DNA from: Trichothermofontia sichuanensis B231 | Lineage (GTDB): Bacteria; Cyanobacteriota; Cyanobacteriia; B231 | Assembly (NCBI RefSeq): GCF_026240635.1 | Contig: NZ_CP110848.1 | Coordinates: 2,296,501 to 2,360,500, forward strand | Direction: 5' to 3' | Length of the DNA stretch: 64,000 nt | Position numbers and translations under genes: made by a program | Shown: positions 32,494 through 61,377 of the stretch, in pieces | How positions within the stretch are numbered: the stretch's first letter is position 1 | How the letters are laid out: every line of letters begins with the position of its first letter | Notes under the pieces: generated by a model | Databases searched by the model: none | Told to the model about the DNA's origin: nothing | Seen by the model: only the letters and a program-made list of their open reading frames with translations

Positions 32494-32874
32494 ATGTCCA
32501 GCTATGCTGCCATCTATGGGATCGTGCGTCAGATTCCCTATGGCCAGGTAGCCACCTACGGCCAGGTGGCCACCTTAGCGGCCTTGCCGGGACAGGCACG
32601 ACTGGTGGGTTATGCCCTCTATCGGGTTGCTCCCGACTCAGATATTCCTTGGCATCGAGTCATCAACGCGAAAGGAACCATTTCCCATTCCAGCCTGCGG
32701 CGGGGAAGCGACTATCTTCAGCAGGTACGGCTGGAGGCAGAGGGAGTTGTATTTAATGCCAATGGTCAGCTTGATGTGCGCCAATACCAGTGGCGACCGG
32801 ATGCTGCGGCGATGATGTCAGACAATCGCAAGGACTCCCGCGCCGAGACAACCCCAGTCAAACCTGACGGGTAG
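32494..32874 (+). CDS. alkyltransferase-like protein (MGMT fold, PWHR motif)
   Basis: The MGMT DNA-binding domain is clear: IYGIVRQIPYGQVATYGQVA, VGYALYRVAPDSDIPWHRVI and LRRGSDYLQQVRLEAEGV. The active-site PCHR of O6-methylguanine methyltransferases reads PWHR, so the acceptor cysteine is replaced by Trp. This defines the ATL group, known to bind O6-alkylguanine without repairing it and to recruit nucleotide excision repair. A C-terminal tail of about 25 residues is not conserved and overlaps the end of the convergent receiver gene by 17 bp. Confidence 0.93.
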   Translation: MSSYAAIYGIVRQIPYGQVATYGQVATLAALPGQARLVGYALYRVAPDSDIPWHRVINAKGTISHSSLRRGSDYLQQVRLEAEGVVFNANGQLDVRQYQWRPDAAAMMSDNRKDSRAETTPVKPDG

Positions 32875-33313
32875 CGCAACGCTCCAGGGCCTTCACCAAG
32901 GCTTCAAAGCGAATCGGTTTACTCACGTAGTCATCCATCCCCGCTTGCAGACAGGATTCGCGATCGCCTTCTAGGGCATGGGCGGTCATCGCGACTAGCC
33001 AGGGTCGCTGATCGGCTGGCCATTCCTGGCGAATGCACTGGGCCGTCTCTAGGCCGTCCATCTTGGGCATTTGGACATCTAGAAACACGAGATCGTAGGT
33101 CTGACGACGCAGCGCCACCAGGACTTCTTCCCCATTGGAGACAGCATCCGCTTGATAACCGAGACGATCGAGCATCCGGAGGGCAACTCTTTGATTCACA
33201 ATGACATCTTCAGCCAGCAAAATTTTGAGGGGTAACCGCTGAGCCATCCCACTATCGATCGCAACCGAATTACTAGACGTCATCATGGCAGTGGCAGATA
33301 GAAGAGTGTCCAT
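32858..33313 (-). CDS. stand-alone response regulator receiver protein
   Basis: A single receiver domain makes up residues about 28-148, with no output domain. Acidic residues are in ILLAEDVIVNQ, the phosphoacceptor Asp79 is in FLDVQMPKMDG, the switch Thr is in AMTAHAL and the conserved Lys in VSKPI. This sequence type resembles receiver modules of hybrid kinases. It may be a phosphorelay intermediate or a CheY-like output for the kinases in this window, but no partner is adjacent. The start at 33313 (MDTLLSATAM) is preferred; an in-frame start at 33355 is possible. It overlaps the alkyltransferase-like gene tail-to-tail. Confidence 0.88.
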   Translation of the reverse strand: MDTLLSATAMMTSSNSVAIDSGMAQRLPLKILLAEDVIVNQRVALRMLDRLGYQADAVSNGEEVLVALRRQTYDLVFLDVQMPKMDGLETAQCIRQEWPADQRPWLVAMTAHALEGDRESCLQAGMDDYVSKPIRFEALVKALERCATRQV

Positions 33314-49255: not shown

Positions 49256-51106
49256 CTAGCCTGATGCCGACGGCTTGGGGGGCGTGACCGCTTGAGCGGG
49301 GTTGGGGGCAGCTTCAGGGCTGGGGCTGTGATCATTGGAGGACGGTTCCGGGGCCTGAACACGGAAGGACGGAGCGACATAATCGGCTGGAAGATAGCTA
49401 GCAGGAATGGTGGAATGGTTACCATCGCGCAGGGCAGTATATGCGGGTGAGAGAATTTCAATATCGTTTTGATTGCAATAATCCTGAATATTTTGATGCA
49501 ATTCTGAATACACCAGAAATAACCTGACGGAAAGATCAGTGTAGGCGTTGAGTTCATAGCTGACATGGAAATCATTCAGGGCTGTTTGCAGGACAAAGGG
49601 TTTAGGTTCAGGGACGATCCCTTTAGTGGCAAGCGCAGCTTCGACTAACACTTGATGTATCTTGCGCCAGGGGATATCGTATCCCAGCGTAATGGTGGTG
49701 TGGACCAGGAGATAGCCCTGATTCTGCCGCACGGTGGCACTGAAATTGAGCACATGGCTATTCAAAACTGTGGAGTTAGGCAATGTGACCACCACGTTTT
49801 TAGAGGTGCGCAGGCGAGTGACAAAAAGAGATGTTTCGATGACAATTCCCATCGCATCCCCCATCTTCACCAGATCACCCAATTGGAAGGCACGGGTATA
49901 GATCAAAATCACACCGGAAATGGCGTTGGCGATCACAGAGGTCGATCCCAAGGAGAAGAGGACACCCAGGAAAATTGATAATCCTCGAAAAACTGGGGAC
50001 CCAAAACCCGGTAGATAGGGTCCGGCAATAATGCCCGCGATCGCAATGACTAAAAAGCTCACCAGGCGTGTCGTGGGTGCTGTCCATTCTGGATAAAACC
50101 AGGGATAGCTATCATCCCGGCCTAATTCATTAATGACCAGTTTGACTAACCCCAAGGCATAGTAGGTCACCAGCATCACCAGTGCGATCGTGACCAAATT
50201 GGGTAAATAGACAATGAACCCCTGGACTAATTGGTTAGCTTGATAGGCAATCATTTGCAACAGCCGATCGCCCAGGGCTTCCGTGGCGGGGAATAATTGC
50301 AGAACAAAGGGAAAGTACAGATAAAGGCAGAATAGAATTAGGAGCAGTCGAACCGCTTTTAAGAGATTGACTAACAGATAGTGGGTTGCTCCGGCTCCTA
50401 ATATCCTGAAATTGCCAATGCGTAAACCTAAAGTTCCCGTTTCATAGCGAACACGAACTTGGTTGAACAGCCGGGGGAAAAGGGCGGCTTGTCCCCGAAA
50501 AATGGCTAAGAGGATGGCCGTACTCACTACGGTCTTAAATACCCCTAGCAGCAAGCGGCGGAAACTGCGTCGCTCACGATACTGGATAATCGCCGTTTCA
50601 ATTAACGTCTTAGCTCTTTGGGCTAACTGTTGGCGTGTCTGGCCACCGTAGGCCTCCCGATCACCTTCACGAACGGTGAGCAGGGTTAAATCATTGACCT
50701 GAATCACGGTAACCTCGCCTTCGTCCTTAATCACCAGATCAGCCGGCGCGATCGTGGGATCATTCGCAACCACCTGTAGACGTTCGCTGATAATTTTGGC
50801 CCGCTCTGCCGCAGACACCAGCCCAGGAATTCCCTGCCTGACGCGAAAGACGATCTGATTTTCCAACCTCACCGGATACCCATCGACTTGATTCCCGGTC
50901 GTGGGGGTGGGGATGATCTCAGACGCAGGCGAGGCAATGACGGGTGATGCTTCAGGAGTGGGGCTGGCTAATTGCGCCAACAGGGGGGACGGAGCCAACA
51001 CCAGCAGGGCGATCGTGACCGCCAGTAACAGCCAACGACGAAGCACAGGAGAACTTGAAAAGCTAAAACCACCGGACTTTACCCAACGCCACTTGCCCAT
51101 TGCCAT
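49256..51106 (-). CDS. MscS family mechanosensitive channel with N-terminal periplasmic domain
   Basis: A signal-like helix (RRWLLLAVTIALLVLAPSPLL) leads into a periplasmic region of about 150 residues with NQIVFRVRQGIPGLVSA. Several membrane helices follow, then the MscS core: the pore-lining TM3 region GVLFSLGSTSVIANAISGVI, the beta-domain with FQLGDLVKMGDAMGIVIE, and the alpha/beta vestibule domain. A Pro/Ser-rich tail ends the protein. I chose the ATG at 51106 (MAMGKWRW, AGAAGG 7 nt upstream), giving about 616 aa; in-frame sequence to 51187 is not conserved. It heads a tight three-gene group after cheA. Confidence 0.9.
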   Translation of the reverse strand: MAMGKWRWVKSGGFSFSSSPVLRRWLLLAVTIALLVLAPSPLLAQLASPTPEASPVIASPASEIIPTPTTGNQVDGYPVRLENQIVFRVRQGIPGLVSAAERAKIISERLQVVANDPTIAPADLVIKDEGEVTVIQVNDLTLLTVREGDREAYGGQTRQQLAQRAKTLIETAIIQYRERRSFRRLLLGVFKTVVSTAILLAIFRGQAALFPRLFNQVRVRYETGTLGLRIGNFRILGAGATHYLLVNLLKAVRLLLILFCLYLYFPFVLQLFPATEALGDRLLQMIAYQANQLVQGFIVYLPNLVTIALVMLVTYYALGLVKLVINELGRDDSYPWFYPEWTAPTTRLVSFLVIAIAGIIAGPYLPGFGSPVFRGLSIFLGVLFSLGSTSVIANAISGVILIYTRAFQLGDLVKMGDAMGIVIETSLFVTRLRTSKNVVVTLPNSTVLNSHVLNFSATVRQNQGYLLVHTTITLGYDIPWRKIHQVLVEAALATKGIVPEPKPFVLQTALNDFHVSYELNAYTDLSVRLFLVYSELHQNIQDYCNQNDIEILSPAYTALRDGNHSTIPASYLPADYVAPSFRVQAPEPSSNDHSPSPEAAPNPAQAVTPPKPSASG

Positions 51107-51254
51107 CGCACTGCCTTCTGGCACAACTCTGCACAACTCTAGAGAGATAACCTTTACCTTAGCGCAAAAGGTATGCTGCTCAGGCAATCAACGCCAACAC
51201 CGGTATGATTTTGTAACACCTACTGGTCACCCCAACTGTGATGGATGGGTGGGA

Positions 51255-53732
51255 TCAAATCAGCCGCTTCAAGGTTTCGAGTAAGACATCCTGGTTAAAG
51301 CTACTCTTGGTGATATAGGCGTTGGCCCCGGCCTCGGCTCCCCGGCGTTTGTCCTCCTCACTGGCGAGGGTGGTGACTAGGATAATCGGTAATTCGCTGT
51401 ATTCCTTGTGTTGGCGAATCCGCTGGGTCAACCCTAACCCATCCAGATTAGGCATTTGGATGTCGCTGACAACAGCATCAAAGGGACGAGTTTGTAGCTT
51501 ATTGAAACCATCGATCCCATCCACAGCGGCTACCACTTCGTAGCCCGCTCCTTCCAGGATGCGCTTTTCCTGCGTTCGGGTGGCGATCGAATCTTCGACT
51601 AACAGGATCGAGCGGCGTCGCTGCTCCGTAGGCTGGGCAGTGGTCATCGGGCGACTCGCTGCCCGCCCCAGACGACGTACTGACTTAATCAAATCCCCTG
51701 GATTTAACACCATACACACCCGCCCAGTCCCCAGAATCGTGGCCCCCGAAATGTTCCGCACCCGCTTGAGTAACTGACTTTGGGGTTTTAGTACCACATC
51801 CTGTTCATCCAGCAAGGCATCGACCAAAATTCCCAGGCGTTCTTCCCCCACCCGCAAAATGATACAGGGTAACTTTTCAACACTGGCCAGGTTCCTGTGT
51901 CTACCATCGTCGTGGTTGGGTAATTCCAGTAACTCCGCTAGAGGGGCAACGGAGATCGGCTGATCCTGGTGCAGAATCGTGGGGCGATTTTCGATCGTAA
52001 ACACACTCTCTAAATGCACCAGACACGCGGTTTCCACCGCTTCGACGGGAATGGCATAGGATTCGCCCCGCACGGCCACAATCAGGACATGGGCGGTGGC
52101 CAGGGTCATGCTCAATTGCAACCGAATGGTACAGCCTTGTCCTGGTGTCGAGAGGACTTGAATGTTGCCCTTGAGGCGATCGACATGGGTGCGCACCACA
52201 TCTAGGCCCACCCCCCGGCCCGACACTTCCGTCACTAAACTCCGGGTGGAGAAGCCCGGTTCAAAGATGAGATTCTGGATTTGGCTGGGCGATAGACTGC
52301 TCAGTTCCTCCTCCGTAACCATGCGCCGTTTGAGGGCCGTTTGCTTAATCTGCTCCAGATCCAGGCCCCGACCATCGTCACTCACTTCAATCACAATATG
52401 GGTGGGGGTTTGGTAACCGCGCAGATGAATCGTGCCCATTGCGGGTTTGCCGCGGCGTTCCCGTTCCGCTGGCGATTCAATCCCGTGATCGACCGCATTC
52501 CGCAGGATATGCATGAGGGGGTCCTTCATTTCCTCCAGGATGCGTTTATCGGCACGGGTATCCCCCCCCTCGATCACCAGTTCGATCGCCTTCCCTTCCT
52601 GCCGCGCTAAATCTCGTACTAACCGCGGGAAGAGGTTAAACAACGTACTTAAGGGCAGGAGCCGGAGGGTCCGAATTTCTGCCTCCAGATCTTCGCTAAT
52701 CAGTTCCAACCGCGCCGTATCCTCGGACAGCGTGCGCCGGATCTGGTTAACCAATGTCCCCAACTGCTCCAGATGGGCCTCGGTCCGGTTGTGAAACTCC
52801 TCCAGCTTTTGCAGGTTACTTGTGCCCTTACGGATTTCCTCTAACAGGAACCGGTTGAGGAATAAATCCCGGCTCCACTCTTCCCACAGGTTAACGATCG
52901 CGTCCACTTCCGCCAACCGATGGGCAATACGGATCTTCGTCACCGTCAGTTCCCCCGCCTGGGTCATCAGGGCATCCAGGTTACGGGTAGGCACGCGGAT
53001 CGTTTCAATACGGTAGCTGCCATCCGCGGGGTTGGTGGTGGCCACGGCGGCCCCTTGGGAGCTATTCGGCCCTTCCGCTTCCGGTCCTGGGCTAGCGTCA
53101 GCTCGGTCGGCCTCCGGCGGGGAAGCCGCCGCGATCGCCTCCCCGCTAACAGGAGCGGTTGAGGCTGCTGCCCTCCCTTCTACGGGGGGAACGGTTTGCG
53201 GTTCTGGCGGGGTGGGGGAATCGGCATCGGCGGTAGCCGGGGGGGCTGCCGGAGCGACGGTTGGTGTGAGGACGGCATCGGCTTGGGGGGCCATAGCGTC
53301 AGCCTCAGCGTCAGCCTCTGGATTCGCAGGTACGGCCTTACCGGCTGCCGGGGTGGCACCCATGAGTTCAGCCAATACATAGAACGTATTAACGGCGGCG
53401 GGTTCACCCGTGAGTGCTTCGTGGACCAATTTACGGACAGCCTCCAGACCATGCCCGAGGTGATCCGCGAGTTCCGGTGTAAACGGTTGCTCACCGCGGG
53501 TCACCTTGCCCAAGAGATGTTCCATCTGGTGAGCCAGGGTACCCAGATCCTTGAGACCCAACATATTGGCATCGCCCTTGAGCGAATGGGTGTCCCGCAT
53601 CAGAGCTTTTAAGGTTTCCAGGTCGTCGGGATGCTTTTCCAGGTGCAACAGACCCGCATCCAGATTTTGGATATGTTCCTCACTGGCGATCGCAAAGACT
53701 TCGCGCAGTTCATCATCTTCGATTCGCATCAT
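51255..53732 (-). CDS. CheA-type histidine kinase with C-terminal receiver domain
   Basis: This 825-aa chemosensory kinase has, in order, HPt (His49 in MRDTHSLKGDANM), a Pro/Ala-rich linker (about 130-240) and a dimerisation helix pair. These are followed by HATPase (ILRNAVDHGIESP, SDDGRGLD, EVSGRGVGLDVVR), a CheW-like P5 domain and a receiver (VSDIQMPNLDG, TKSSF). The CheB/CheY-binding P2 domain is absent. Such CheA-REC proteins are typical of cyanobacterial Tax/Pix/Hmp systems. It is the last che gene on this strand, 118 bp after mcp1. The start at 53732 or 53729 is ambiguous. Confidence 0.95.
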   Translation of the reverse strand: MMRIEDDELREVFAIASEEHIQNLDAGLLHLEKHPDDLETLKALMRDTHSLKGDANMLGLKDLGTLAHQMEHLLGKVTRGEQPFTPELADHLGHGLEAVRKLVHEALTGEPAAVNTFYVLAELMGATPAAGKAVPANPEADAEADAMAPQADAVLTPTVAPAAPPATADADSPTPPEPQTVPPVEGRAAASTAPVSGEAIAAASPPEADRADASPGPEAEGPNSSQGAAVATTNPADGSYRIETIRVPTRNLDALMTQAGELTVTKIRIAHRLAEVDAIVNLWEEWSRDLFLNRFLLEEIRKGTSNLQKLEEFHNRTEAHLEQLGTLVNQIRRTLSEDTARLELISEDLEAEIRTLRLLPLSTLFNLFPRLVRDLARQEGKAIELVIEGGDTRADKRILEEMKDPLMHILRNAVDHGIESPAERERRGKPAMGTIHLRGYQTPTHIVIEVSDDGRGLDLEQIKQTALKRRMVTEEELSSLSPSQIQNLIFEPGFSTRSLVTEVSGRGVGLDVVRTHVDRLKGNIQVLSTPGQGCTIRLQLSMTLATAHVLIVAVRGESYAIPVEAVETACLVHLESVFTIENRPTILHQDQPISVAPLAELLELPNHDDGRHRNLASVEKLPCIILRVGEERLGILVDALLDEQDVVLKPQSQLLKRVRNISGATILGTGRVCMVLNPGDLIKSVRRLGRAASRPMTTAQPTEQRRRSILLVEDSIATRTQEKRILEGAGYEVVAAVDGIDGFNKLQTRPFDAVVSDIQMPNLDGLGLTQRIRQHKEYSELPIILVTTLASEEDKRRGAEAGANAYITKSSFNQDVLLETLKRLI

Positions 53733-53772
53733 GACAGTCCTCGTAGCAAGGTCCTGGTGGCAGACAATTACG

Positions 53773-53801
53773 AACAGCGACTAACAGCGAACTAACAGCG
53801 A
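53773..53801. repeat. short tandem repeat between mcp and cheA
   Basis: The unit ACTAACAGCGA, or slightly truncated versions, occurs about three times in a row in the 118-bp spacer upstream of cheA. Confidence 0.7.
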
Positions 53802-53850
53802 ACAAGTCACTTCTTGCCGTTTCCGGCTTGCTTCCCTGAACTGGCTTCCC

Positions 53851-55308
53851 TCAAACGATCGCCTGCAAATTTTGGGCTGCTTCATTCAGACGCTGGGTGC
53901 CTATGCGGATTTGGCTAATCCCTCCCGTGGTTTCCTTGGCGGCAACATTAAGCGCATTCATCGCATCGACGACCTGTTGAATCGCGATCGCCTGTTGCTT
54001 GATGTTGAGCGAAATCTGCTGGTTATTCAGCACCACATTATTGATCGCCATTGCCACCCCTGAAAACGCATCTGAAGTTTCCTGGGCAATGCGGACACCT
54101 TCATCAACCGTCTTGGTACCCTCGTCGGTAGCCATAACGGTGGCATTGATTGCGTTTTGAATATCTGTGACCAGATCGCTGATGCGTTCCGCCGATTTTT
54201 TGCTTTCATCCGCCAGTTTACGAATTTCTGCCGCCACGACCGAAAAGCCCTTGCCATGTTCCCCCGCCCGCACAGCTTCCACAGCGGCATTGAGGGCTAA
54301 CATATTAGTCTGGTTGGCCAAATCGCTCACAAGGCCGGAAATACTCCCAATCTGGCTGGTTTGCTCACTGAGGCGCAGGATTTGTTCCGCGATCGCGCTC
54401 ACCTTGGTTTTCAGCGTTGCCATCCCCTGGATTGTGCGTTCAACAGCCCGTGTGCCATTATCGGCAAGGGTCAAGGCTTGCTGCGCTCCTGCTGCTGCCG
54501 CTTCGGCCTGTTCGGCAGACTGGCGGGAGGAGGCTCCCAATTCATCCATTGTTGTGGTGGTTTGGCTGACCGAGGCCGCCTGGTGGCTGGAACTGCGCTC
54601 CTGCTCTTCAATACTGGCAGCAATTTGAGTAGTGGAACTGGCGATCGTACTGGCTGCTTCGCTCATCTGCTGGCTGGCCCGCCGGATCACAAGCGTGCCA
54701 ATGACCCCGGAGGCGATCAGAGAAATCGTCGAAGCCCAAACCAGCAAGCGTTGTAAATCATTCAAGGCTTTGTCCTGGCGCTCGTGGGCTGCTTGCACTA
54801 GCTTGCGTTCATGGGCATCCATCACGCTTAAGGCATTGGCCACTGCCTCTGCCTGGGTGCGTCCATTCTCCCGACGCCATGCTTCTACAGCCTCAGCTTG
54901 TTTACCCTGCTCCACCTGCTCCACAAAACTCTGATTAAGAGTAATCAGCGCGGTGGCTAGGGGTTTCATGTTTTCTAGATTCTTCCGCTGGCTCGGATCA
55001 ACGATCATGGCGTCCAATCGGGCTAAGGCCGCTTCGTAAGCACTCTTCGCTGTTTTAAACCCCTGGCGGAATTCATCATTGCGATCTAACAGGTACCCCC
55101 GAGTCGTCCGCGAGATGACATTCAAATCCACGCTAATGGCATTGATTTCATATAAAACCGCATTGGCATGGGCAACAGTGGCTGTCGTTTCCTTAACCCG
55201 ATTTACACTTATAAAGGCCATTGTGGCAGCCCCTAACAGGGCAATCACAGGAACCGCATACCCTATAGCAATCAACTGCCGCAGTTTTAATTGTTTCCGT
55301 TGCAACAT
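53851..55308 (-). CDS. methyl-accepting chemotaxis protein 1 (CHASE3-like sensor, no HAMP)
   Basis: This is a 485-aa transmembrane receptor. TM1 (about 15-33) is followed by a four-helix periplasmic domain resembling CHASE3 ([12 protein letters not shown]...) and TM2 (about 190-208). The signalling coiled coil follows directly, with no recognisable HAMP domain. The hairpin tip is intact ([21 protein letters not shown], quoted in part), and QQ/EE methylation-type sites occur. No NWETF-like tail is present. It is a paralogue of the next gene upstream and lies 80 bp from it. Confidence 0.95.
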
Positions 55309-55388
55309 ACAAACCAGTCCTCCTTAAAGAAAATCGTGAAGGAGTAACCCTGACGAGCGGATGGGTCCATTGACCGCCAACGGCGGCA

Positions 55389-56846
55389 CTATACAAGTGC
55401 CTTCAGATTTTGGGCGGTATCATTTAGGCGTTGGATACCCATCCGAATTTGACTGATCCCGTTCGTTGTCTCCTGAGCTGCTGCATTCAGGGCATTCATG
55501 GCATCGACCACCTGTTGAATCGCGATCGCCTGTTGTTTGATATTGAGGGAAATTTGCTGATTATTGAGCACCACATTGTTCACGGCACTCGCCACCCCCG
55601 CAAAAGCATCTGAGGTTTGCTGGGCAATCCGCACCCCTTCATCGACCGTCTTGGTGCCCTCGTCGGTAGCCATCACGGTAGCGTTGATCGCATTCTGGAT
55701 ATCCGTGACCAGATCACTGATCCGTTCCGCAGATCGGCGACTTTCATCCGCCAGTTTGCGAATTTCTGCCGCCACGACCGAAAAGCCCTTGCCATGTTCC
55801 CCCGCCCGCACAGCTTCCACCGCCGCATTCAGGGCCAGCATATTCGTCTGGTTGGCTAGGTCACTCACAAGCCCTGAGATGCTGCCAATCTGGCTGGTTT
55901 GCTCACTCAGACGCAGAATTTGCTCCGCGATCGCGCTGACCTTGCGCTTGAGGGTTGCCATCCCTGTGATCGTGCGTTCTACGGCCTGTGTCCCGTTATC
56001 AGCAAGAGCTAGGGCTTGCTGTGCTCCATTGGCTGCTGCTTCAGCCTGTTGCGCAGACTGGCGGGAAGACGCCCCCAACTCGTCCATGGTGGTCGAGGTT
56101 TGATTGACCGATGCTGCCTGATGGCTCGAACTGCGTTCCTGTTCTTCAATACTGGCGGCAATTTCCATCGTTGAACTGGCAATCATTGCTGCCGCCTGAT
56201 TCAACTGCTGACTGGCCCGGCGGATGACCAAGGTGCCAATGACCCCCGAAGCCACCAGGGAAATCGCCGAAGCCCAAATCAGCGATCGTTGTAAAGCCTT
56301 CAGCGCTTCACGCTCTTGCGTCTGACTGGCTGCCACCAAGTCTCGCTCGTAGTCATTCATCGTTTGCAAGGCCTGCACAACCGCATCCGCCTGTGCCTGT
56401 CCGTTCTGCTGACGCCAAGCCTGGATGGCTGCCTCTAGTTTACCCTCCTGAACCATCCTGATCAAATTTTCATCCAAGGTGATTAGCTCGTCGGCTAACG
56501 GTTTGATCGTTTGCAGGTTTTCCTTCTGGGCAGTATCGGTAACCAACCTCTGTAACGTTGAAAACGACTCCTGATAACTCGTTTTCGCCTTATTAAAATT
56601 CGCCAAAGACGTTGGGTTGGGTTGGAGCAAATACCCACGGGTGGTCCGTGAAACAACATTCAGGTCGACGGTTATCCGGTTAATGCGATCCAAAACTTCA
56701 GAGGAATGGGCGACGGCTGCACTGCTGGCTTTGACGCGATTCACACTGATCAAGGCAATGGCGGCTGCACTGAATAAGGCGATCACGGGTACGGCATAAC
56801 CTACCACAATTAACTGGCGCAGTTTGAACTGATTTCGCTGAGACAT
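55389..56846 (-). CDS. methyl-accepting chemotaxis protein 2 (paralogue of MCP1)
   Basis: This is exactly as long as MCP1 (485 aa), with the same layout of TM1, CHASE3-like sensor, TM2 and signalling domain without HAMP. The signalling half is nearly identical to MCP1, and the sensory half has diverged substantially ([20 protein letters not shown] versus [12 protein letters not shown]). This pattern points to a tandem duplication followed by sensor divergence or gene conversion of the signalling half. It is 137 bp downstream of the cheW gene. Confidence 0.95.
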
Positions 56847-56983
56847 GTTGTTACCTACCTGATAGCAAACCGTGGAATACCCGTCATAGTACGCATCCCC
56901 ATACCCTCATGCCACCCCAGCGGCCCACATCCATTGATAGCGAGACCCACGACGGGAAATATGAGGTTTGATGAACTGAATAA

Positions 56984-58153
56984 TTAAACCTCCTCATTGA
57001 TCACAAGATTCCCCTTGAGGAAAATTTTGGGCAGATCTAAGATGCCCATTGACTGGTTGTAATAGGGAGCAACGCCCTCTAGAAATTCATCGTGGCCTGT
57101 ATGTAACGCTGTCGGAATCGGCTGAACATCATGTGGATCGACATAGATCACATCCAAAACATCATCCACCACAACCCCCGCCACCAGTTCATCCAGATGA
57201 ATGAGCATCGCTTTGGTTTTGGCGGCCCCATTCATGGGCAGGTTTAAGGCATGGCTGATATCGACTAAGGTCACGACCTCACCCCGCAGGTTGATATTGC
57301 CAACAATATGACTGGGACAGCAGGGAATCGGGGTAATTGTGTGAATATCGGTGAACTCATGAATGTTGGCAAGGTCAATGCCAAAAAGTTCTCCTTGGAG
57401 ATTAATAACGGCGAGGGGCTGCAACCCTACCTTACTTTCCTGTTCCGTGCGGGACCGTAAACTCCTGGCCCGTTGTTGAAAAATCTCCCAGACTTCAGGG
57501 CTGACCTGGGCAAAGCCCGGAATCGGAGAGACTGCCGATACGCACACGTCGTCACCTCGCTGGTGTAGAGCATCATGAGGACCTGATTGAGCACTTGATG
57601 GCTCGGCTGTGGCATCAACGATCTCAGCGGTGGCCTCAGCAGCGGTGGCGGGGAGGGCTGTCTCTAATAGGGTGGCTTCCGTGTCTGCCTGACTGAGCCG
57701 ATCGCTATACTGTAGAATTTGCACCACATCCAACAAGGTAACGATTTGGGTCCCAATCTCTACCAGATCAATTACAAAGTGCTGGTTGTTCAGCGGTTCC
57801 CCTCGCCCATAGGTCAGATCGACCGCTTGACGATCGCGCTGGACTTCTTCGACATCATAAACGCGATCGACAATGATTCCCGCCCGACTATTGTCCGTTT
57901 GCAGCACAATCACACTATCGGTGAGTTGGTAGGGACGACTGGGCCGACCAAAGCGTCGATTCAAATCCATCACCGGTAAGATCTCACCTCGCAGGTTAAG
58001 CACCCCCACAATATCTGGCGGAGCTTCCGCAACCGGAACTAGGGCTGGCAGAAAAAAAATTTCCTGCACTGCCGAGGTGTTGATGCCATAGCGACATTGA
58101 TTGAGATCAAAAATCAGGTAATGGCAGGCTGAGGTCAGATATCTGTTATCCAT
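56984..58153 (-). CDS. double CheW-domain coupling protein
   Basis: Two CheW-like domains (about 8-150 and 240-385) are joined by an Ala/Thr/Glu-rich linker. The first contains VAEAPPDIVGVLNLRGEILP, the second CCPSHIVGNINLRGEVVTLV, both with the standard NLRG motif. A two-domain CheW could bridge receptors or link to two CheA P5 domains. The start at 58153 is inside a perfect 17-bp duplication that also creates an upstream ATG followed at once by TAG. It lies between cheR and the MCP genes. Confidence 0.93.
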   Translation of the reverse strand: MDNRYLTSACHYLIFDLNQCRYGINTSAVQEIFFLPALVPVAEAPPDIVGVLNLRGEILPVMDLNRRFGRPSRPYQLTDSVIVLQTDNSRAGIIVDRVYDVEEVQRDRQAVDLTYGRGEPLNNQHFVIDLVEIGTQIVTLLDVVQILQYSDRLSQADTEATLLETALPATAAEATAEIVDATAEPSSAQSGPHDALHQRGDDVCVSAVSPIPGFAQVSPEVWEIFQQRARSLRSRTEQESKVGLQPLAVINLQGELFGIDLANIHEFTDIHTITPIPCCPSHIVGNINLRGEVVTLVDISHALNLPMNGAAKTKAMLIHLDELVAGVVVDDVLDVIYVDPHDVQPIPTALHTGHDEFLEGVAPYYNQSMGILDLPKIFLKGNLVINEEV

Positions 58154-58184
58154 GTCTTGTTTAACTACATGTCTTGTTTAACTA
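58151..58184 (-). repeat. 17-bp tandem duplication covering the cheW start codon
   Basis: CATGTCTTGTTTAACTA occurs twice with no gap (58151-58167 and 58168-58184). On the minus strand each unit ends in ATG. The upstream ATG is immediately followed by TAG, so only the second ATG opens cheW. The duplication is exact, so it is probably recent. Confidence 0.92.
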
Positions 58185-58201
58185 CAAGCTAATATCTTAA
58201 C

Positions 58202-58307
58202 TATGGTCAATCTAAATAAGAATGATACAGTTTTTCACTCCCCTCTCTCGCTCTGGGAGGGGGGTGGGGGTGAGGGTAGTGTTTCAGCCTAAATTGCAAT
58301 GACTATA
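58202..58307 (+). repeat. MITE-like dispersed repeat, family A, copy 3
   Basis: This 106-bp element starts TATGGTCAATCTAAATAAG and ends AATTGCAATGACTATA, in the spacer between cheR and cheW. It is in the same orientation as copies 2 and 4. Confidence 0.9.
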
Positions 58308-58441
58308 AAAGGTAATCCTGATTGTTAATGCCCACAACTTGAGTTAGTACCCACTTAGGACATCAACACCCGTTCATCTATTAAATACCCTGATTGGATC
58401 TTTCCCCCTCGGTTCAGTAAATAATGGAGATGATATAAAAA

Positions 58442-60049
58442 TTAAACTTTAGTATTTGTTCGTAATTTTTTCTCCAGGTATTGTTTGAGATCTTTAACTG
58501 TCAAGGGATCAGTCGCTTCGATCAAGGTGTCACTGGGCAATTTCTTAAGGATTTCTAAAGCCGATAGCCACATCTTATTGGCCCTCGCCCAGTTACCCTC
58601 GTGATCGTAGAGGTTCCCTAATTCCACGTAAGCATTAATCGCATCTGGTTCTAGATAAATAATGCGTTTCAAGAAAACTTTTGCACCTTCGCGATCGCCT
58701 TTTGCTTCAGCGATCTGGGCGAGAAGATAGTAGGGCTTCAAGACCCAAGCATTCAGATCTAATGCCTGTTTGCAGGTGATTTCGGCCTTGGTATAATCCC
58801 CTAAACTCGCATAGGCTTCTGCCATTAGGCAAAAGGCTGGCAGACATTGAGGTTGACGTTGAATCAAGGCTTCAGCGGCCACAATCACCTCGGCATATTG
58901 TCCCTGTTGGAGATAGCGAGTCAGGGTCTGTAATTCTGCGGTTGCATCGTTTGGGCAGTCGTCTGGGGGGGGGGTAACCGCGTCCCCTAGGGGCAACGAT
59001 CGCGCGGCAGAGGGCGATGGGCGAGAGGGGGTAGGGGGGAGAATCGTCGGCGGATAGGGTAAGGGGGCAGGTTGCGGCACCGTGATCGGGGGGAGGGGAG
59101 ACGCCATCAGTGGGGCGGCGGCGGGCTGGGGAGTGGCAGGAGCGGGGGCACTGGGAGGGAGGTGAACGGGAGGATCTGGATCCAGCGATCGTTGGTAGAG
59201 CAGGGATTGGGGAAAGCTACGAACCCGGAAGGGCGGCAACGTCTGGCCGTAGAGTTCCGTATGGCCAGTGATCAGGTAACCATTGGGCACCAGGCTTGCA
59301 TAGAACTTGTGTAAAACCCGGTGAATGGCTTCTGGATCAAAATAGATGAAAACGTTACGACAAAGAATGAGGTCGAAATCATACAGCCCTGACTGGGGAC
59401 TGGGGAAAGGATCTTGGACTAAATTGCCATAGCGAAAGGTAACCAGCCGTCGAATCTCGGGTCGGATTTCCCAGCCATCCCGGTAGTGACGGAAGTAGGT
59501 TTGCCGCAGACGTATCTCGGTATGCCGGAAGGACCAGTCACTGTAGATCCCCCGCTGGGCAATTGTCAGGGTGTTCTGGTTAATATCCGTGCCCAAGATC
59601 ACAATGTCCCAGTCATGCCAGTCAGCGATCGCTTCGTGCAGCAGGATCGCTAGGGAATAGGCTTCCTCACCGGTGGCACAACCGGCGCTCCAGAGGCGAA
59701 GGGTGGGTTTGATTCTGGTTTCGCCCCAGTATCGAGTGCCCTGGGAACGTTTGCGATCGATCAACTCCGGCAGGAGGATTTCCCGCAGCAATGAGAATTG
59801 TCCCTGATCACGGAAAAAATAACTTTCGGTAGTCGTCAACAGGTTCAGGAGTTCGCGCCATTCTGGATGGCAGGTATTGTTACGATTCTCAGCCAGCAAC
59901 TGGTAATAAGCTTCGGGCGTGAGCTTACCCACCGCCTGTAACCGCTTTTGCAGCTTTTGTACCAGTAGATCACGGTCTTGGAGACGAATCTGCAAACCTG
60001 TGGTTTCGCCAATCAGAGAGACAAATTGTTGGAGCAAAGCATCACGCAT
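58442..60049 (-). CDS. CheR-type MCP methyltransferase with C-terminal TPR repeats
   Basis: This 535-aa protein has an N-terminal CheR domain (about 1-275) with TTTESYFFRDQGQF, the SAM site LWSAGCATGEEAYSLAI and FDLILCRNVFIYFDPE. A long Pro/Ala-rich linker (280-350) and three or four TPR repeats (about 365-520, for example FLKRIIYLEPDAINAYVELG) follow. TPR-bearing CheR proteins (FrzF, WspC class) usually belong to non-flagellar systems. It is the first gene of the chemosensory cluster. The ATG at 60049 (MRDALLQQF) fits the family. No cheB is in the window. Confidence 0.94.
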   Translation of the reverse strand: MRDALLQQFVSLIGETTGLQIRLQDRDLLVQKLQKRLQAVGKLTPEAYYQLLAENRNNTCHPEWRELLNLLTTTESYFFRDQGQFSLLREILLPELIDRKRSQGTRYWGETRIKPTLRLWSAGCATGEEAYSLAILLHEAIADWHDWDIVILGTDINQNTLTIAQRGIYSDWSFRHTEIRLRQTYFRHYRDGWEIRPEIRRLVTFRYGNLVQDPFPSPQSGLYDFDLILCRNVFIYFDPEAIHRVLHKFYASLVPNGYLITGHTELYGQTLPPFRVRSFPQSLLYQRSLDPDPPVHLPPSAPAPATPQPAAAPLMASPLPPITVPQPAPLPYPPTILPPTPSRPSPSAARSLPLGDAVTPPPDDCPNDATAELQTLTRYLQQGQYAEVIVAAEALIQRQPQCLPAFCLMAEAYASLGDYTKAEITCKQALDLNAWVLKPYYLLAQIAEAKGDREGAKVFLKRIIYLEPDAINAYVELGNLYDHEGNWARANKMWLSALEILKKLPSDTLIEATDPLTVKDLKQYLEKKLRTNTKV

Positions 60050-60354
60050 GGAAAACCACAAGCTGTGTTCAAAAATGGGGACAGGGCGTCAACAGAGCCG
60101 CTCAGCCAAGGGCCGATCGCGTGTCCCAAGGGGACAGTAGTGGCGATCGGTGCGGCTACTCGTGCAACGGTGCGTTTCTCATCAATTTAACGTGTCACTT
60201 AAGATTTCCCATCCCTAGACCGTGAATCGCCCTCTAGTAGCTGATCGCAGGGGTGGACGTAGCCTATCTTTTCAATCAGGCTAACACTGCCTCTACCCGG
60301 GAAAGCCAGTTTTGGAAGAGATTTATCGATGCGGTACCTCACCCCAAAGGGGAA

Positions 60355-60461
60355 TATGGTCAATCCAAATAAGAAGGATACAGTTTGTCACTCCCCTTTC
60401 CCGCTCTGGGAGAGGGGCTGGGGGTGAGGGTGCTGTTTCAGCCTAAATTGCAATGACTATA
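60355..60461 (+). repeat. MITE-like dispersed repeat, family A, copy 4
   Basis: This 107-bp element starts TATGGTCAATCCAAATAAG and ends AATTGCAATGACTATA, nearly identical to 44740-44846, with the CTCCC/GGGAG central hairpin. Confidence 0.9.
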
Positions 60462-60621
60462 ACCGCAACCCTGCCCGTGACTTCCCGCTGGTGGCAGGGA
60501 AATAGCCTATGGCCAAGTTGATGCCTTGGCTTCTGCCGCCCCCCGTCACCTTCCTGAGGTATAGTCAGTACTATTAGCCCCCGGGGTCACCCCCAAACCC
60601 AGTTAGCCCTTATTAAGAACC

Positions 60622-60855
60622 TACAGCCTTTACCGCAATCATCAAGTCCATTTTACCTGGGTAGGCTGGGTGCAGCCCACGGGTGCGGCCCTTACCCTAA
60701 ATCCCTCTCCTAGGGCGGGAGGGGGATTTGAAAATCCCACTCCCCTTCACCCCTTGTGGGAGAAGGGGTTGGGGGATGAGGGCTGCCGGTAGAATCCCGA
60801 TTCAAACCTTAACGCTGGACTGAGTCAATTAGGTGTCAATTAGGTAAAGGCTGTA
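60622..60855 (-). repeat. MITE-like element, family D, with 13-bp perfect inverted ends
   Basis: Perfect inverted ends TACAGCCTTTACC (60622-60634) and GGTAAAGGCTGTA (60843-60855) bound a 234-bp block. Inside are CTCTCCC/GGGAG arms, CCACTCCCC...GGGAGAAGGGG arms, and the GATTCAAACCTTAACG segment shared (inverted) with 31787-31952 and 23210-23450. No open frame lies inside. Confidence 0.85.
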
Positions 60856-60889
60856 CTAGGAACATATTAGGAACATTGGAACATTGCCC

Positions 60890-61174
60890 ATGCCGAAAGC
60901 CATTTGGAACGGTGCAATTCTCGCCGAAAGCGATCGCTGCGAACAGGTGGAAGGGAACTACTACTTTCCCCCCGATGCCATTCGTCCCGAATATTTCAAA
61001 CCCAGTGACACCCACACCACCTGTAGTTGGAAAGGCGTCGCTAGCTACTACACACTGGTTGTCAATGGCCAAGAAAATGTGGATGCAGCCTGGTACTATT
61101 CTGAACCCAAAGAAGCCGCCAAACAGATCCGCGGTTATGTTGCCTTTTGGCGTGGCGTAAAAGTTGAGCCGTAG
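60890..61174 (+). CDS. DUF427 domain protein
   Basis: This 94-aa single-domain protein of the DUF427 family is a small beta-rich fold widespread in cyanobacteria and actinobacteria with no established function. It has KAIWNGAILAESDRCEQVEG near the start, YYFPPDAIRPEYFKPSDTHT, CSWKGVASYYTL and YYSEPKEAAKQIRGYVAFW. The ATG at 60890 is chosen; a TTG at 60884 adds two residues. It lies just downstream of a MITE-like element (35 bp). Confidence 0.93.
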   Translation: MPKAIWNGAILAESDRCEQVEGNYYFPPDAIRPEYFKPSDTHTTCSWKGVASYYTLVVNGQENVDAAWYYSEPKEAAKQIRGYVAFWRGVKVEP

Positions 61175-61178
61175 GGCT

Positions 61179-61350
61179 TAGCTAGATGGGGGCAGCCCAC
61201 GGGTGTGACCCTCACCCAACCCCTCTCCCAGAGCGGGCGAGAGGCTGCGGTTGGCAGCTTTCTCGCTAGCCCTTGGCCTTACCCTACCCTTTGGGCGAGC
61301 CAAAAAGCCGTAAAAAGGTAGCACTTCCTCCCCCCGTTCAGGAGAGGGTC
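61179..61350 (+). repeat. degenerate repeat block between DUF427 and rplI
   Basis: This contains GGGGGCAGCCCACGGGTGTG and CCCTCACCC...CCCTCTCCCAGAGCGGGCGAGAGG, shared with the block at 60665-60720 and others. The boundaries are approximate. Confidence 0.45.
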
Positions 61351-61377
61351 AGCAGTCAAGGCCGTGCTTCTGGACCT

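What the first reader, a model, noticed from the sequence alone, without database searches (positions are those of the whole stretch)
51255..60049. Chemosensory operon of an unusual composition: CheR-TPR, double CheW, two HAMP-less MCPs, CheA-REC, no CheB or CheY
The five genes are on one strand. The receptors lack a recognisable HAMP domain between TM2 and the signalling helices. The coupling protein has two CheW domains, the methyltransferase carries TPRs as in Frz/Wsp-type systems, and the only receiver in the operon is fused to CheA. There is no methylesterase and no separate CheY, unlike the known cyanobacterial Tax/Pix/Hmp operons, which usually begin with PatA/CheY-type genes. It may control a process other than motility.
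Basis: partly seen in the sequence, partly recalled or inferred. Interest (0 to 1): 0.6.

Follow-up and report, generated by a model that had tools for sequence, protein, structure and literature searches.

The report
Split cyanobacterial chemosensory operon, HAMP-less receptors
The five genes are the front part of a sensing-and-adaptation system that is common in filamentous cyanobacteria; in this genome its 'missing' methylesterase and output regulators appear to sit elsewhere on the chromosome, so the operon is less odd than it first looked, although the system itself remains unstudied.

Summary
Five minus-strand genes (60049-51255) encode CheR-TPR, CheW-CheW, two CHASE3 chemoreceptors without HAMP, and CheA-REC, with no cheB or cheY beside them.

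The picture of a system without CheB or CheY does not hold genome-wide. This operon carries the genome's only CheR. The genome has exactly one CheB, 1.97 Mb away, directly behind a pentapeptide-repeat gene. In three relatives the same pair, pentapeptide gene then cheB, ends the operon after cheA. Trees place this CheB among operon CheBs. A stand-alone CheY-like family flanks the operon in 28 of 41 named and 19 of 37 unnamed relative loci; its three best matches in this genome are orphans elsewhere. The receiver at 32858-33313 is not one of them. So the window holds the head of a widespread operon (cheR-TPR / cheWW / mcp / cheA-REC / [PPR] / cheB) whose tail and output were separated. CheB is also unlinked in six other genomes of three other families.

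Lack of HAMP is real and shared by the family. Most likely function: methylation-adapted control of type IV pilus gliding. The evidence leans that way but does not prove it. New variant of a known kind.

The parts
58442..60049 (-). cheR-TPR, receptor methyltransferase with C-terminal TPRs (possible TTG start at 60061); the only CheR of the genome
   Evidence: sole PF01739 match in G000
56984..58153 (-). cheW-cheW, coupling protein with two CheW domains
   Evidence: 61 of 291 class genomes match it at E<=1e-20, window genome included
55389..56846 (-). CHASE3 chemoreceptor 1, no HAMP; methylation-type motif [10 protein letters not shown] at residue 231
53851..55308 (-). CHASE3 chemoreceptor 2, no HAMP; tandem duplicate of receptor 1 (sensor part 115/210, signalling part 245/275 residues identical)
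51255..53732 (-). cheA-REC: Hpt (HSLKG at 49), extended dimerisation region, HATPase, CheW, C-terminal receiver (VSDIQMP at 755); no P2 domain found
51188..51254 (.). proposed break: relatives continue here with (pentapeptide-repeat gene and) cheB; in this genome a MscS-type channel gene follows on the same strand
   Evidence: tail pair found at G000:C1:386331-388733

Best explanation
Shown by sequence: the window carries the head (cheR-TPR, cheWW, two HAMP-less CHASE3 receptors, cheA-REC) of a chemosensory operon conserved in many cyanobacteria. Its tail (pentapeptide-repeat gene then cheB) lies at G000:C1:386331-388733. Three orphan CheYs of the family that flanks this operon in relatives lie at C1:3777403-3777900, C1:3778229-3778636 and about C1:783746-784123. 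A receptor related to a second operon receptor of another genome lies at C1:3984291-3985784. Inferred: the two receptors sense a periplasmic or membrane signal through CHASE3 and pass it straight down an uninterrupted helix to a CheA/CheWW array. CheA phosphorylates its own receiver (a sink or gate), the orphan CheYs (output) and CheB. CheR-TPR and the distant CheB add and remove receptor methyl groups, so the system adapts. The output most likely tunes type IV pilus gliding or reversals. Which CheY acts, what is sensed, and what the pentapeptide protein does are not known.
For: One CheB and one CheR in a one-contig genome rated 99.76% complete. The PPR of the G130 operon has its best G000 match directly upstream of that CheB (E 1.5e-115, 61% identity; next best 3.2e-44); L093, L101 and L110 have cheA-PPR-cheB in one operon. 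CheB tree: G000 CheB falls among operon CheBs (96/94); 26 of 30 decoy CheBs form a separate clade (99), the other four being operon-set CheBs themselves. CheA sister to the G072 operon CheA (100/99). Flanking CheYs: 28 of 41 named and 19 of 37 unnamed loci; top three G000 matches 66, 63 and 56% identity, then a drop to 36%; clade support 97. CheB passes NCBIfam CheB cut-offs. Motility lean: single-domain output; extended CheA dimerisation region; J-Box-like element 5' of the CheY family in 13 of 56 rows against 26 of 1043 other genes, G000 CheY at -74 included; T2SSE-family ATPases present, two of them neighbours at 1.667 Mb.
Against: No experiment. CheB and CheY partnership rests on homology and gene neighbourhood in relatives. 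The J-Box-like element was not found at the required score 5' of the window operon, PPR-cheB, the orphan receptor or the genome's own pil operon, and at least 6 of the 13 CheY rows are Nostoc or Nostocales records, so rows are not independent. CheR-TPR is associated in print with ACF, not motility, clusters (PMC3447774). The REC tree is a quick one with long-branch warnings. The methylation-type motif is absent from both G072 receptors.
Confidence: 0.62

Rival explanations
1. A Wsp-like (ACF) pathway: the same array controls c-di-GMP, polysaccharide or gene expression rather than motility; the true output is a multidomain response regulator elsewhere.
For: CheR-TPR clusters are mostly ACF-like in print (PMC3447774); CheR-TPR, two CheW domains and CheA-REC recall WspC, WspB/D and WspE; the genome has 87 REC matches.
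Against: The conserved neighbour is a single-domain CheY; no REC-GGDEF in the window operon; J-Box-like enrichment 5' of the CheY family.
Confidence: 0.27
2. A system without demethylation: CheR acts alone, and the CheB at 386 kb serves another pathway.
For: cheB is unlinked here; the genome has another CheA with a HAMP-bearing receptor (Pil type).
Confidence: 0.08
3. A decaying remnant of a once complete operon.
For: Operon tail and flanking cheY are gone from the locus; the upstream receptor type seen in G072 is absent.
Against: All reading frames are open; CheA kinase, phospho-acceptor and receiver residues lie in columns invariant among 10 CheAs; a receptor duplication with diverged sensor and conserved signalling parts.
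Confidence: 0.03

Closest known systems
   Same: cheR-TPR, cheWW, two CHASE3 receptors, cheA-REC in the same order; sister CheA
   Different: Followed by PPR and cheB in one operon; its first receptor is of a type the window lacks
Planktothrix sp. PCC 11201 operon (L226)
   Same: R-WW-M-M-A with no cheB within the stretch held
   Different: Where its CheB lies was not looked up
Wsp system of Pseudomonas (ACF class)
   Same: CheR-TPR, two CheW domains, CheA-REC, transmembrane receptor
   Different: CheW domains fused here; no REC-GGDEF WspR; receptors lack HAMP; cheB unlinked. Wsp details recalled, except CheR-TPR and WspR from PMC3447774
Frz system of Myxococcus
   Same: CheR-TPR (FrzF), CheA-REC, reversal control as a model of function
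   Different: FrzCD is a cytoplasmic receptor; FrzZ is a double receiver (recalled, apart from the cytoplasmic receptor, which one search's listing of PMC12077210 states)
Cyanobacterial Tax/Pix/Hmp systems
   Same: Present in the same genome (Pil-type operon at C1:301-311 kb); CheA-REC
   Different: No CheR/CheB in Synechocystis (PMC4758948); CheY/PatA-type genes and a HAMP receptor; very divergent CheA

Membership tests
Conserved cyanobacterial cheR-TPR / cheWW / CHASE3-mcp / cheA-REC / cheB operon (defined here from relatives) | Gene order R-WW-M-A on one strand | tested here: met
   cheB at C1:386331-387470 (coordinates); counts
Conserved cyanobacterial cheR-TPR / cheWW / CHASE3-mcp / cheA-REC / cheB operon (defined here from relatives) | CheA and CheB descend with those of the other operons | tested here: met
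Wsp (ACF) | CheR-TPR and CheA-REC | tested here: met
Wsp (ACF) | REC-GGDEF output in the cluster | tested here: not met
   none in the operon; whole genome not searched for GGDEF
Wsp (ACF) | CheA class by published class HMMs | not testable with these tools
   class HMMs not on hand
Frz | Cytoplasmic receptor | tested here: inconclusive
   hydrophobic stretches near residues 14-36 and 185-206 are seen in the sequence, and CHASE3 between them, which speaks for a membrane receptor; no TM predictor was run
Tax/Pix/Hmp (type IV pilus class) | CheY/PatA-type genes in front, HAMP receptor | tested here: not met
Type IV pilus (Tfp) CheA class | Extended dimerisation domain (over 70 aa) | tested here: inconclusive
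   about 110 residues between 243 and the kinase start by eye; PMC10782961 reports the longest ones in Tfp CheAs of Cyanobacteria and Chloroflexota; no class HMM

The most novel reading that the evidence does not exclude
This is the temporal-memory module of gliding filamentous cyanobacteria. The model unicellular strain Synechocystis lacks CheR and CheB and senses light direction another way; filaments with this module would compare light or chemistry over time through receptor methylation and set reversals through a dedicated CheY family. HAMP-less receptors send the signal along one continuous helix. Its genes can be scattered (here over five places) without loss of the pathway.
Probability: 0.3. 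Interest if true: 0.7.

Novelty: new variant of a known kind. Interest (0 to 1): 0.42.

Why it matters
How cyanobacterial taxis adapts is poorly understood (PMC5812497), and the model strain Synechocystis lacks CheR and CheB (PMC4758948). A widespread, intact CheR/CheB system in mostly filamentous genera makes methylation-based adaptation testable there. Annotators should not read 'no CheB' from operon context alone: the enzyme can be a lone gene far away. The receptors are also a natural test of signalling without HAMP.

Tried and rejected
The receiver at 32858-33313 as output: it does not group with the operon-linked CheY family and is not among the 43 G000 matches to that family at E<=1e-8. 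Rejected.

Methylation consensus: one site in each window receptor, at residue 231; expected 0.17 per shuffled signalling part. Absent from both G072 receptors and found at another place in the orphan receptor, so only weak support.

J-Box scan (consensus from PMC6495340, passages read): enriched 5' of the CheY family (13 of 56) and of cheWW (12 of 102), against 26 of 1043 other genes; 300 permuted motifs gave at most 0.125 for CheY and 0.108 for cheWW. Nothing at that score 5' of the window operon, PPR-cheB or the orphan receptor. The pil operon, which might have served as a positive control, had none either. Kept as a lean only.

Promoter/terminator scan of 50900-60700: promoter-like 10 against 6.8 expected, terminator-like 5 against 10: uninformative. 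The one terminator-like site past cheA is at 51088-51070, inside the next gene.

CheR and CheA against plasmids: only matches below 60% identity: no useful outside relative. NCBIfam gave no Wsp or Frz assignment. Of its hits to the pentapeptide protein only one passes its cut-off (Alr5209 family pentapeptide repeat protein); the effector- and resistance-type hits are below cut-off and reflect repeats only. PDB searches gave generic CheR, TPR and receiver matches.

Rows dropped or missing: in the REC tree two orphan receivers (4242359, 1353828) and the CheY at 783746 were absent, because my ORF caller dropped the first two and the third had not been fetched; all three are ranked.
Full report
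Observation. Five minus-strand genes lie where stated. Pfam gives CheR with TPRs, a double CheW, two CHASE3/MCPsignal receptors and CheA with Hpt, HATPase, CheW and REC. The receptors have no HAMP by profile; the same genome's Pil-type receptor does (3.7e-08). AlphaFold on a 27-row alignment gives one helix from residue 149 to 347, a tip at 348 and a return helix 349-484 (mean pLDDT 80.4, pTM 0.37), so TM2 runs directly into the signalling hairpin. About 20 heptads per arm, counted by eye, is my estimate and would fit a 40H-type receptor (class name recalled).

Whole genome. The assembly is one contig of 4,436,989 bases, rated 99.76% complete. It has one CheR (the window gene), one CheB at C1:386364-386888, four MCPs, five CheW domains and 87 receiver matches. 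The CheB ORF is a full REC-CheB of 379 aa and exceeds both NCBIfam CheB cut-offs.

Relatives. The double CheW matches 61 of 291 class genomes at E<=1e-20, window genome included. Sixty stretches around such matches, and 16 more stretches, were mapped with my own ORF caller and phmmer. A named scan with a CheA alignment gave 80 loci, of which 41 hold cheR-TPR next to cheWW; in these, cheA is in 41, cheB in 37 and the CheY family in 28. Among the 37 unnamed stretches the same counts are cheA 31, cheB 26 and CheY 19, some stretches being cut by contig ends. The two sets overlap. Named records are mostly of genera known as filamentous (morphology recalled): Microcoleus, Oscillatoria, Planktothrix, Nostoc, Leptolyngbya, Nodosilinea, Okeania and others. 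Exceptions are an Aphanothece MAG and one Nitrospinota MAG (L284).

The operon tail. In L093, L101 and L110 a pentapeptide-repeat gene stands between cheA and cheB. Searching the window genome with the L110 protein gives, as best of 34 matches, C1:387561-388547 (61% identity, E 1.5e-115; second best 3.2e-44), immediately upstream of the sole CheB. The pair is on one strand with 45 bases between the ORFs. A maximum-likelihood CheB tree puts this CheB with operon CheBs of G072, G137, G130, G007, G179, G162 and G203 (96/94). With 30 other CheBs added, 26 form a separate clade (99) and four are CheBs already in the operon set. So the operon was most likely broken between cheA and the pentapeptide gene.

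CheB linkage. Three are unresolved at contig ends. In seven (G000, G018, G035, G049, G021, G183, G050; families f1, f19, f22, f28) cheB lies elsewhere than the cheR-cheWW part. All 37 have at least one CheB, against 184 of 291 overall.

The output. Direct ranking with the L110 CheY gives 66% (3778256), 63% (783746) and 56% (3777535), then 36% for the fourth of 43 matches. Many members share a segment of the form FD[KR]xxGRxAGAxxYLxKP, absent from the other G000 orphan receivers in the set. I recall something similar in pilus-type PilG; this was not tested.

Receptors. The two window receptors are sisters (100) within the type nearest cheA in relatives; the other type seen in G072 and others is missing. 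The orphan receptor at C1:3984291-3985784 is sister to the second receptor of the G050 operon (100) (a quick tree with long-branch warnings). The window pair shares 115 of 210 residues in the sensor part and 245 of 275 in the signalling part: either duplication followed by sensor divergence, or conversion of the signalling part.

Function. Shown: intact core enzymes and a methyltransferase/methylesterase pair. Inferred: adaptation by methylation, and output through the CheY family. For motility: the conserved output is single-domain, which PMC3447774 (Results, first of three parts, read) associates with taxis rather than ACF; CheA has a long dimerisation region as reported for pilus-class CheAs of Cyanobacteria (PMC10782961, passages); J-Box-like elements precede 13 of 56 CheY-family genes against 26 of 1043 others; T2SSE-family ATPases are present. 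Against: CheR-TPR is an ACF hallmark in the same 2012 paper, which also found single-domain regulators in some CheR-TPR clusters of species without flagella, only half of them with type IV pilus genes; the rows are related; the window operon itself has no J-Box-like element at that score.

Literature. PMC3447774 already reports CheR-TPR in cyanobacteria (passages and part of Results). PMC4758948 (one passage) says Synechocystis lacks CheR and CheB. PMC5812497 (passages) says adaptation in such photoresponses is little understood. Nine searches of the open library showed no paper on this operon, its pentapeptide gene or its break-up in the listings I saw; subscription journals are mostly not held.

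Verdict. A real, conserved and, as far as my searches show, unstudied cyanobacterial chemosensory system, here split. Odd by operon context, ordinary by genome content.

Noticed in passing
window 49256-51187 (-): A MscS-type channel gene follows cheA by 67 bases on the same strand, where relatives continue with PPR or cheB; co-transcription is possible.
   Followed up: no
L284 (Nitrospinota MAG, contig JACOWJ010000028.1): A complete cheR-TPR/cheWW/mcp/cheA/cheB operon (CheA 52% identity) in a record labelled Nitrospinota: horizontal transfer or mis-binning.
   Followed up: partly
L108, L111, L115, L116, L117, L118, L095, L096 and others: A second pentapeptide-repeat protein (about 279 aa), different from the cheA-cheB one, stands directly upstream of cheR-TPR; found in 12 of 37 unnamed loci.
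   Followed up: partly
L102 11532-16340, L189 11790-14084: Large PAS/GAF histidine kinases stand next to cheR-TPR in several relatives.
   Followed up: no
L086, L091, L136, L138, L203: Hybrid operons join a PatA-like receiver protein, cheWW, receptor, cheA and another CheY family with cheB and, in four of the five, cheR-TPR: a possible link between Tax-like and CheR-type systems.
   Followed up: partly
window 60062-61370: A 1.3-kb region upstream of cheR without an obvious conserved gene holds short GC-rich repeats of the form CCCCTCTCC...GGGAGAGG in both orientations (seen).
   Followed up: no
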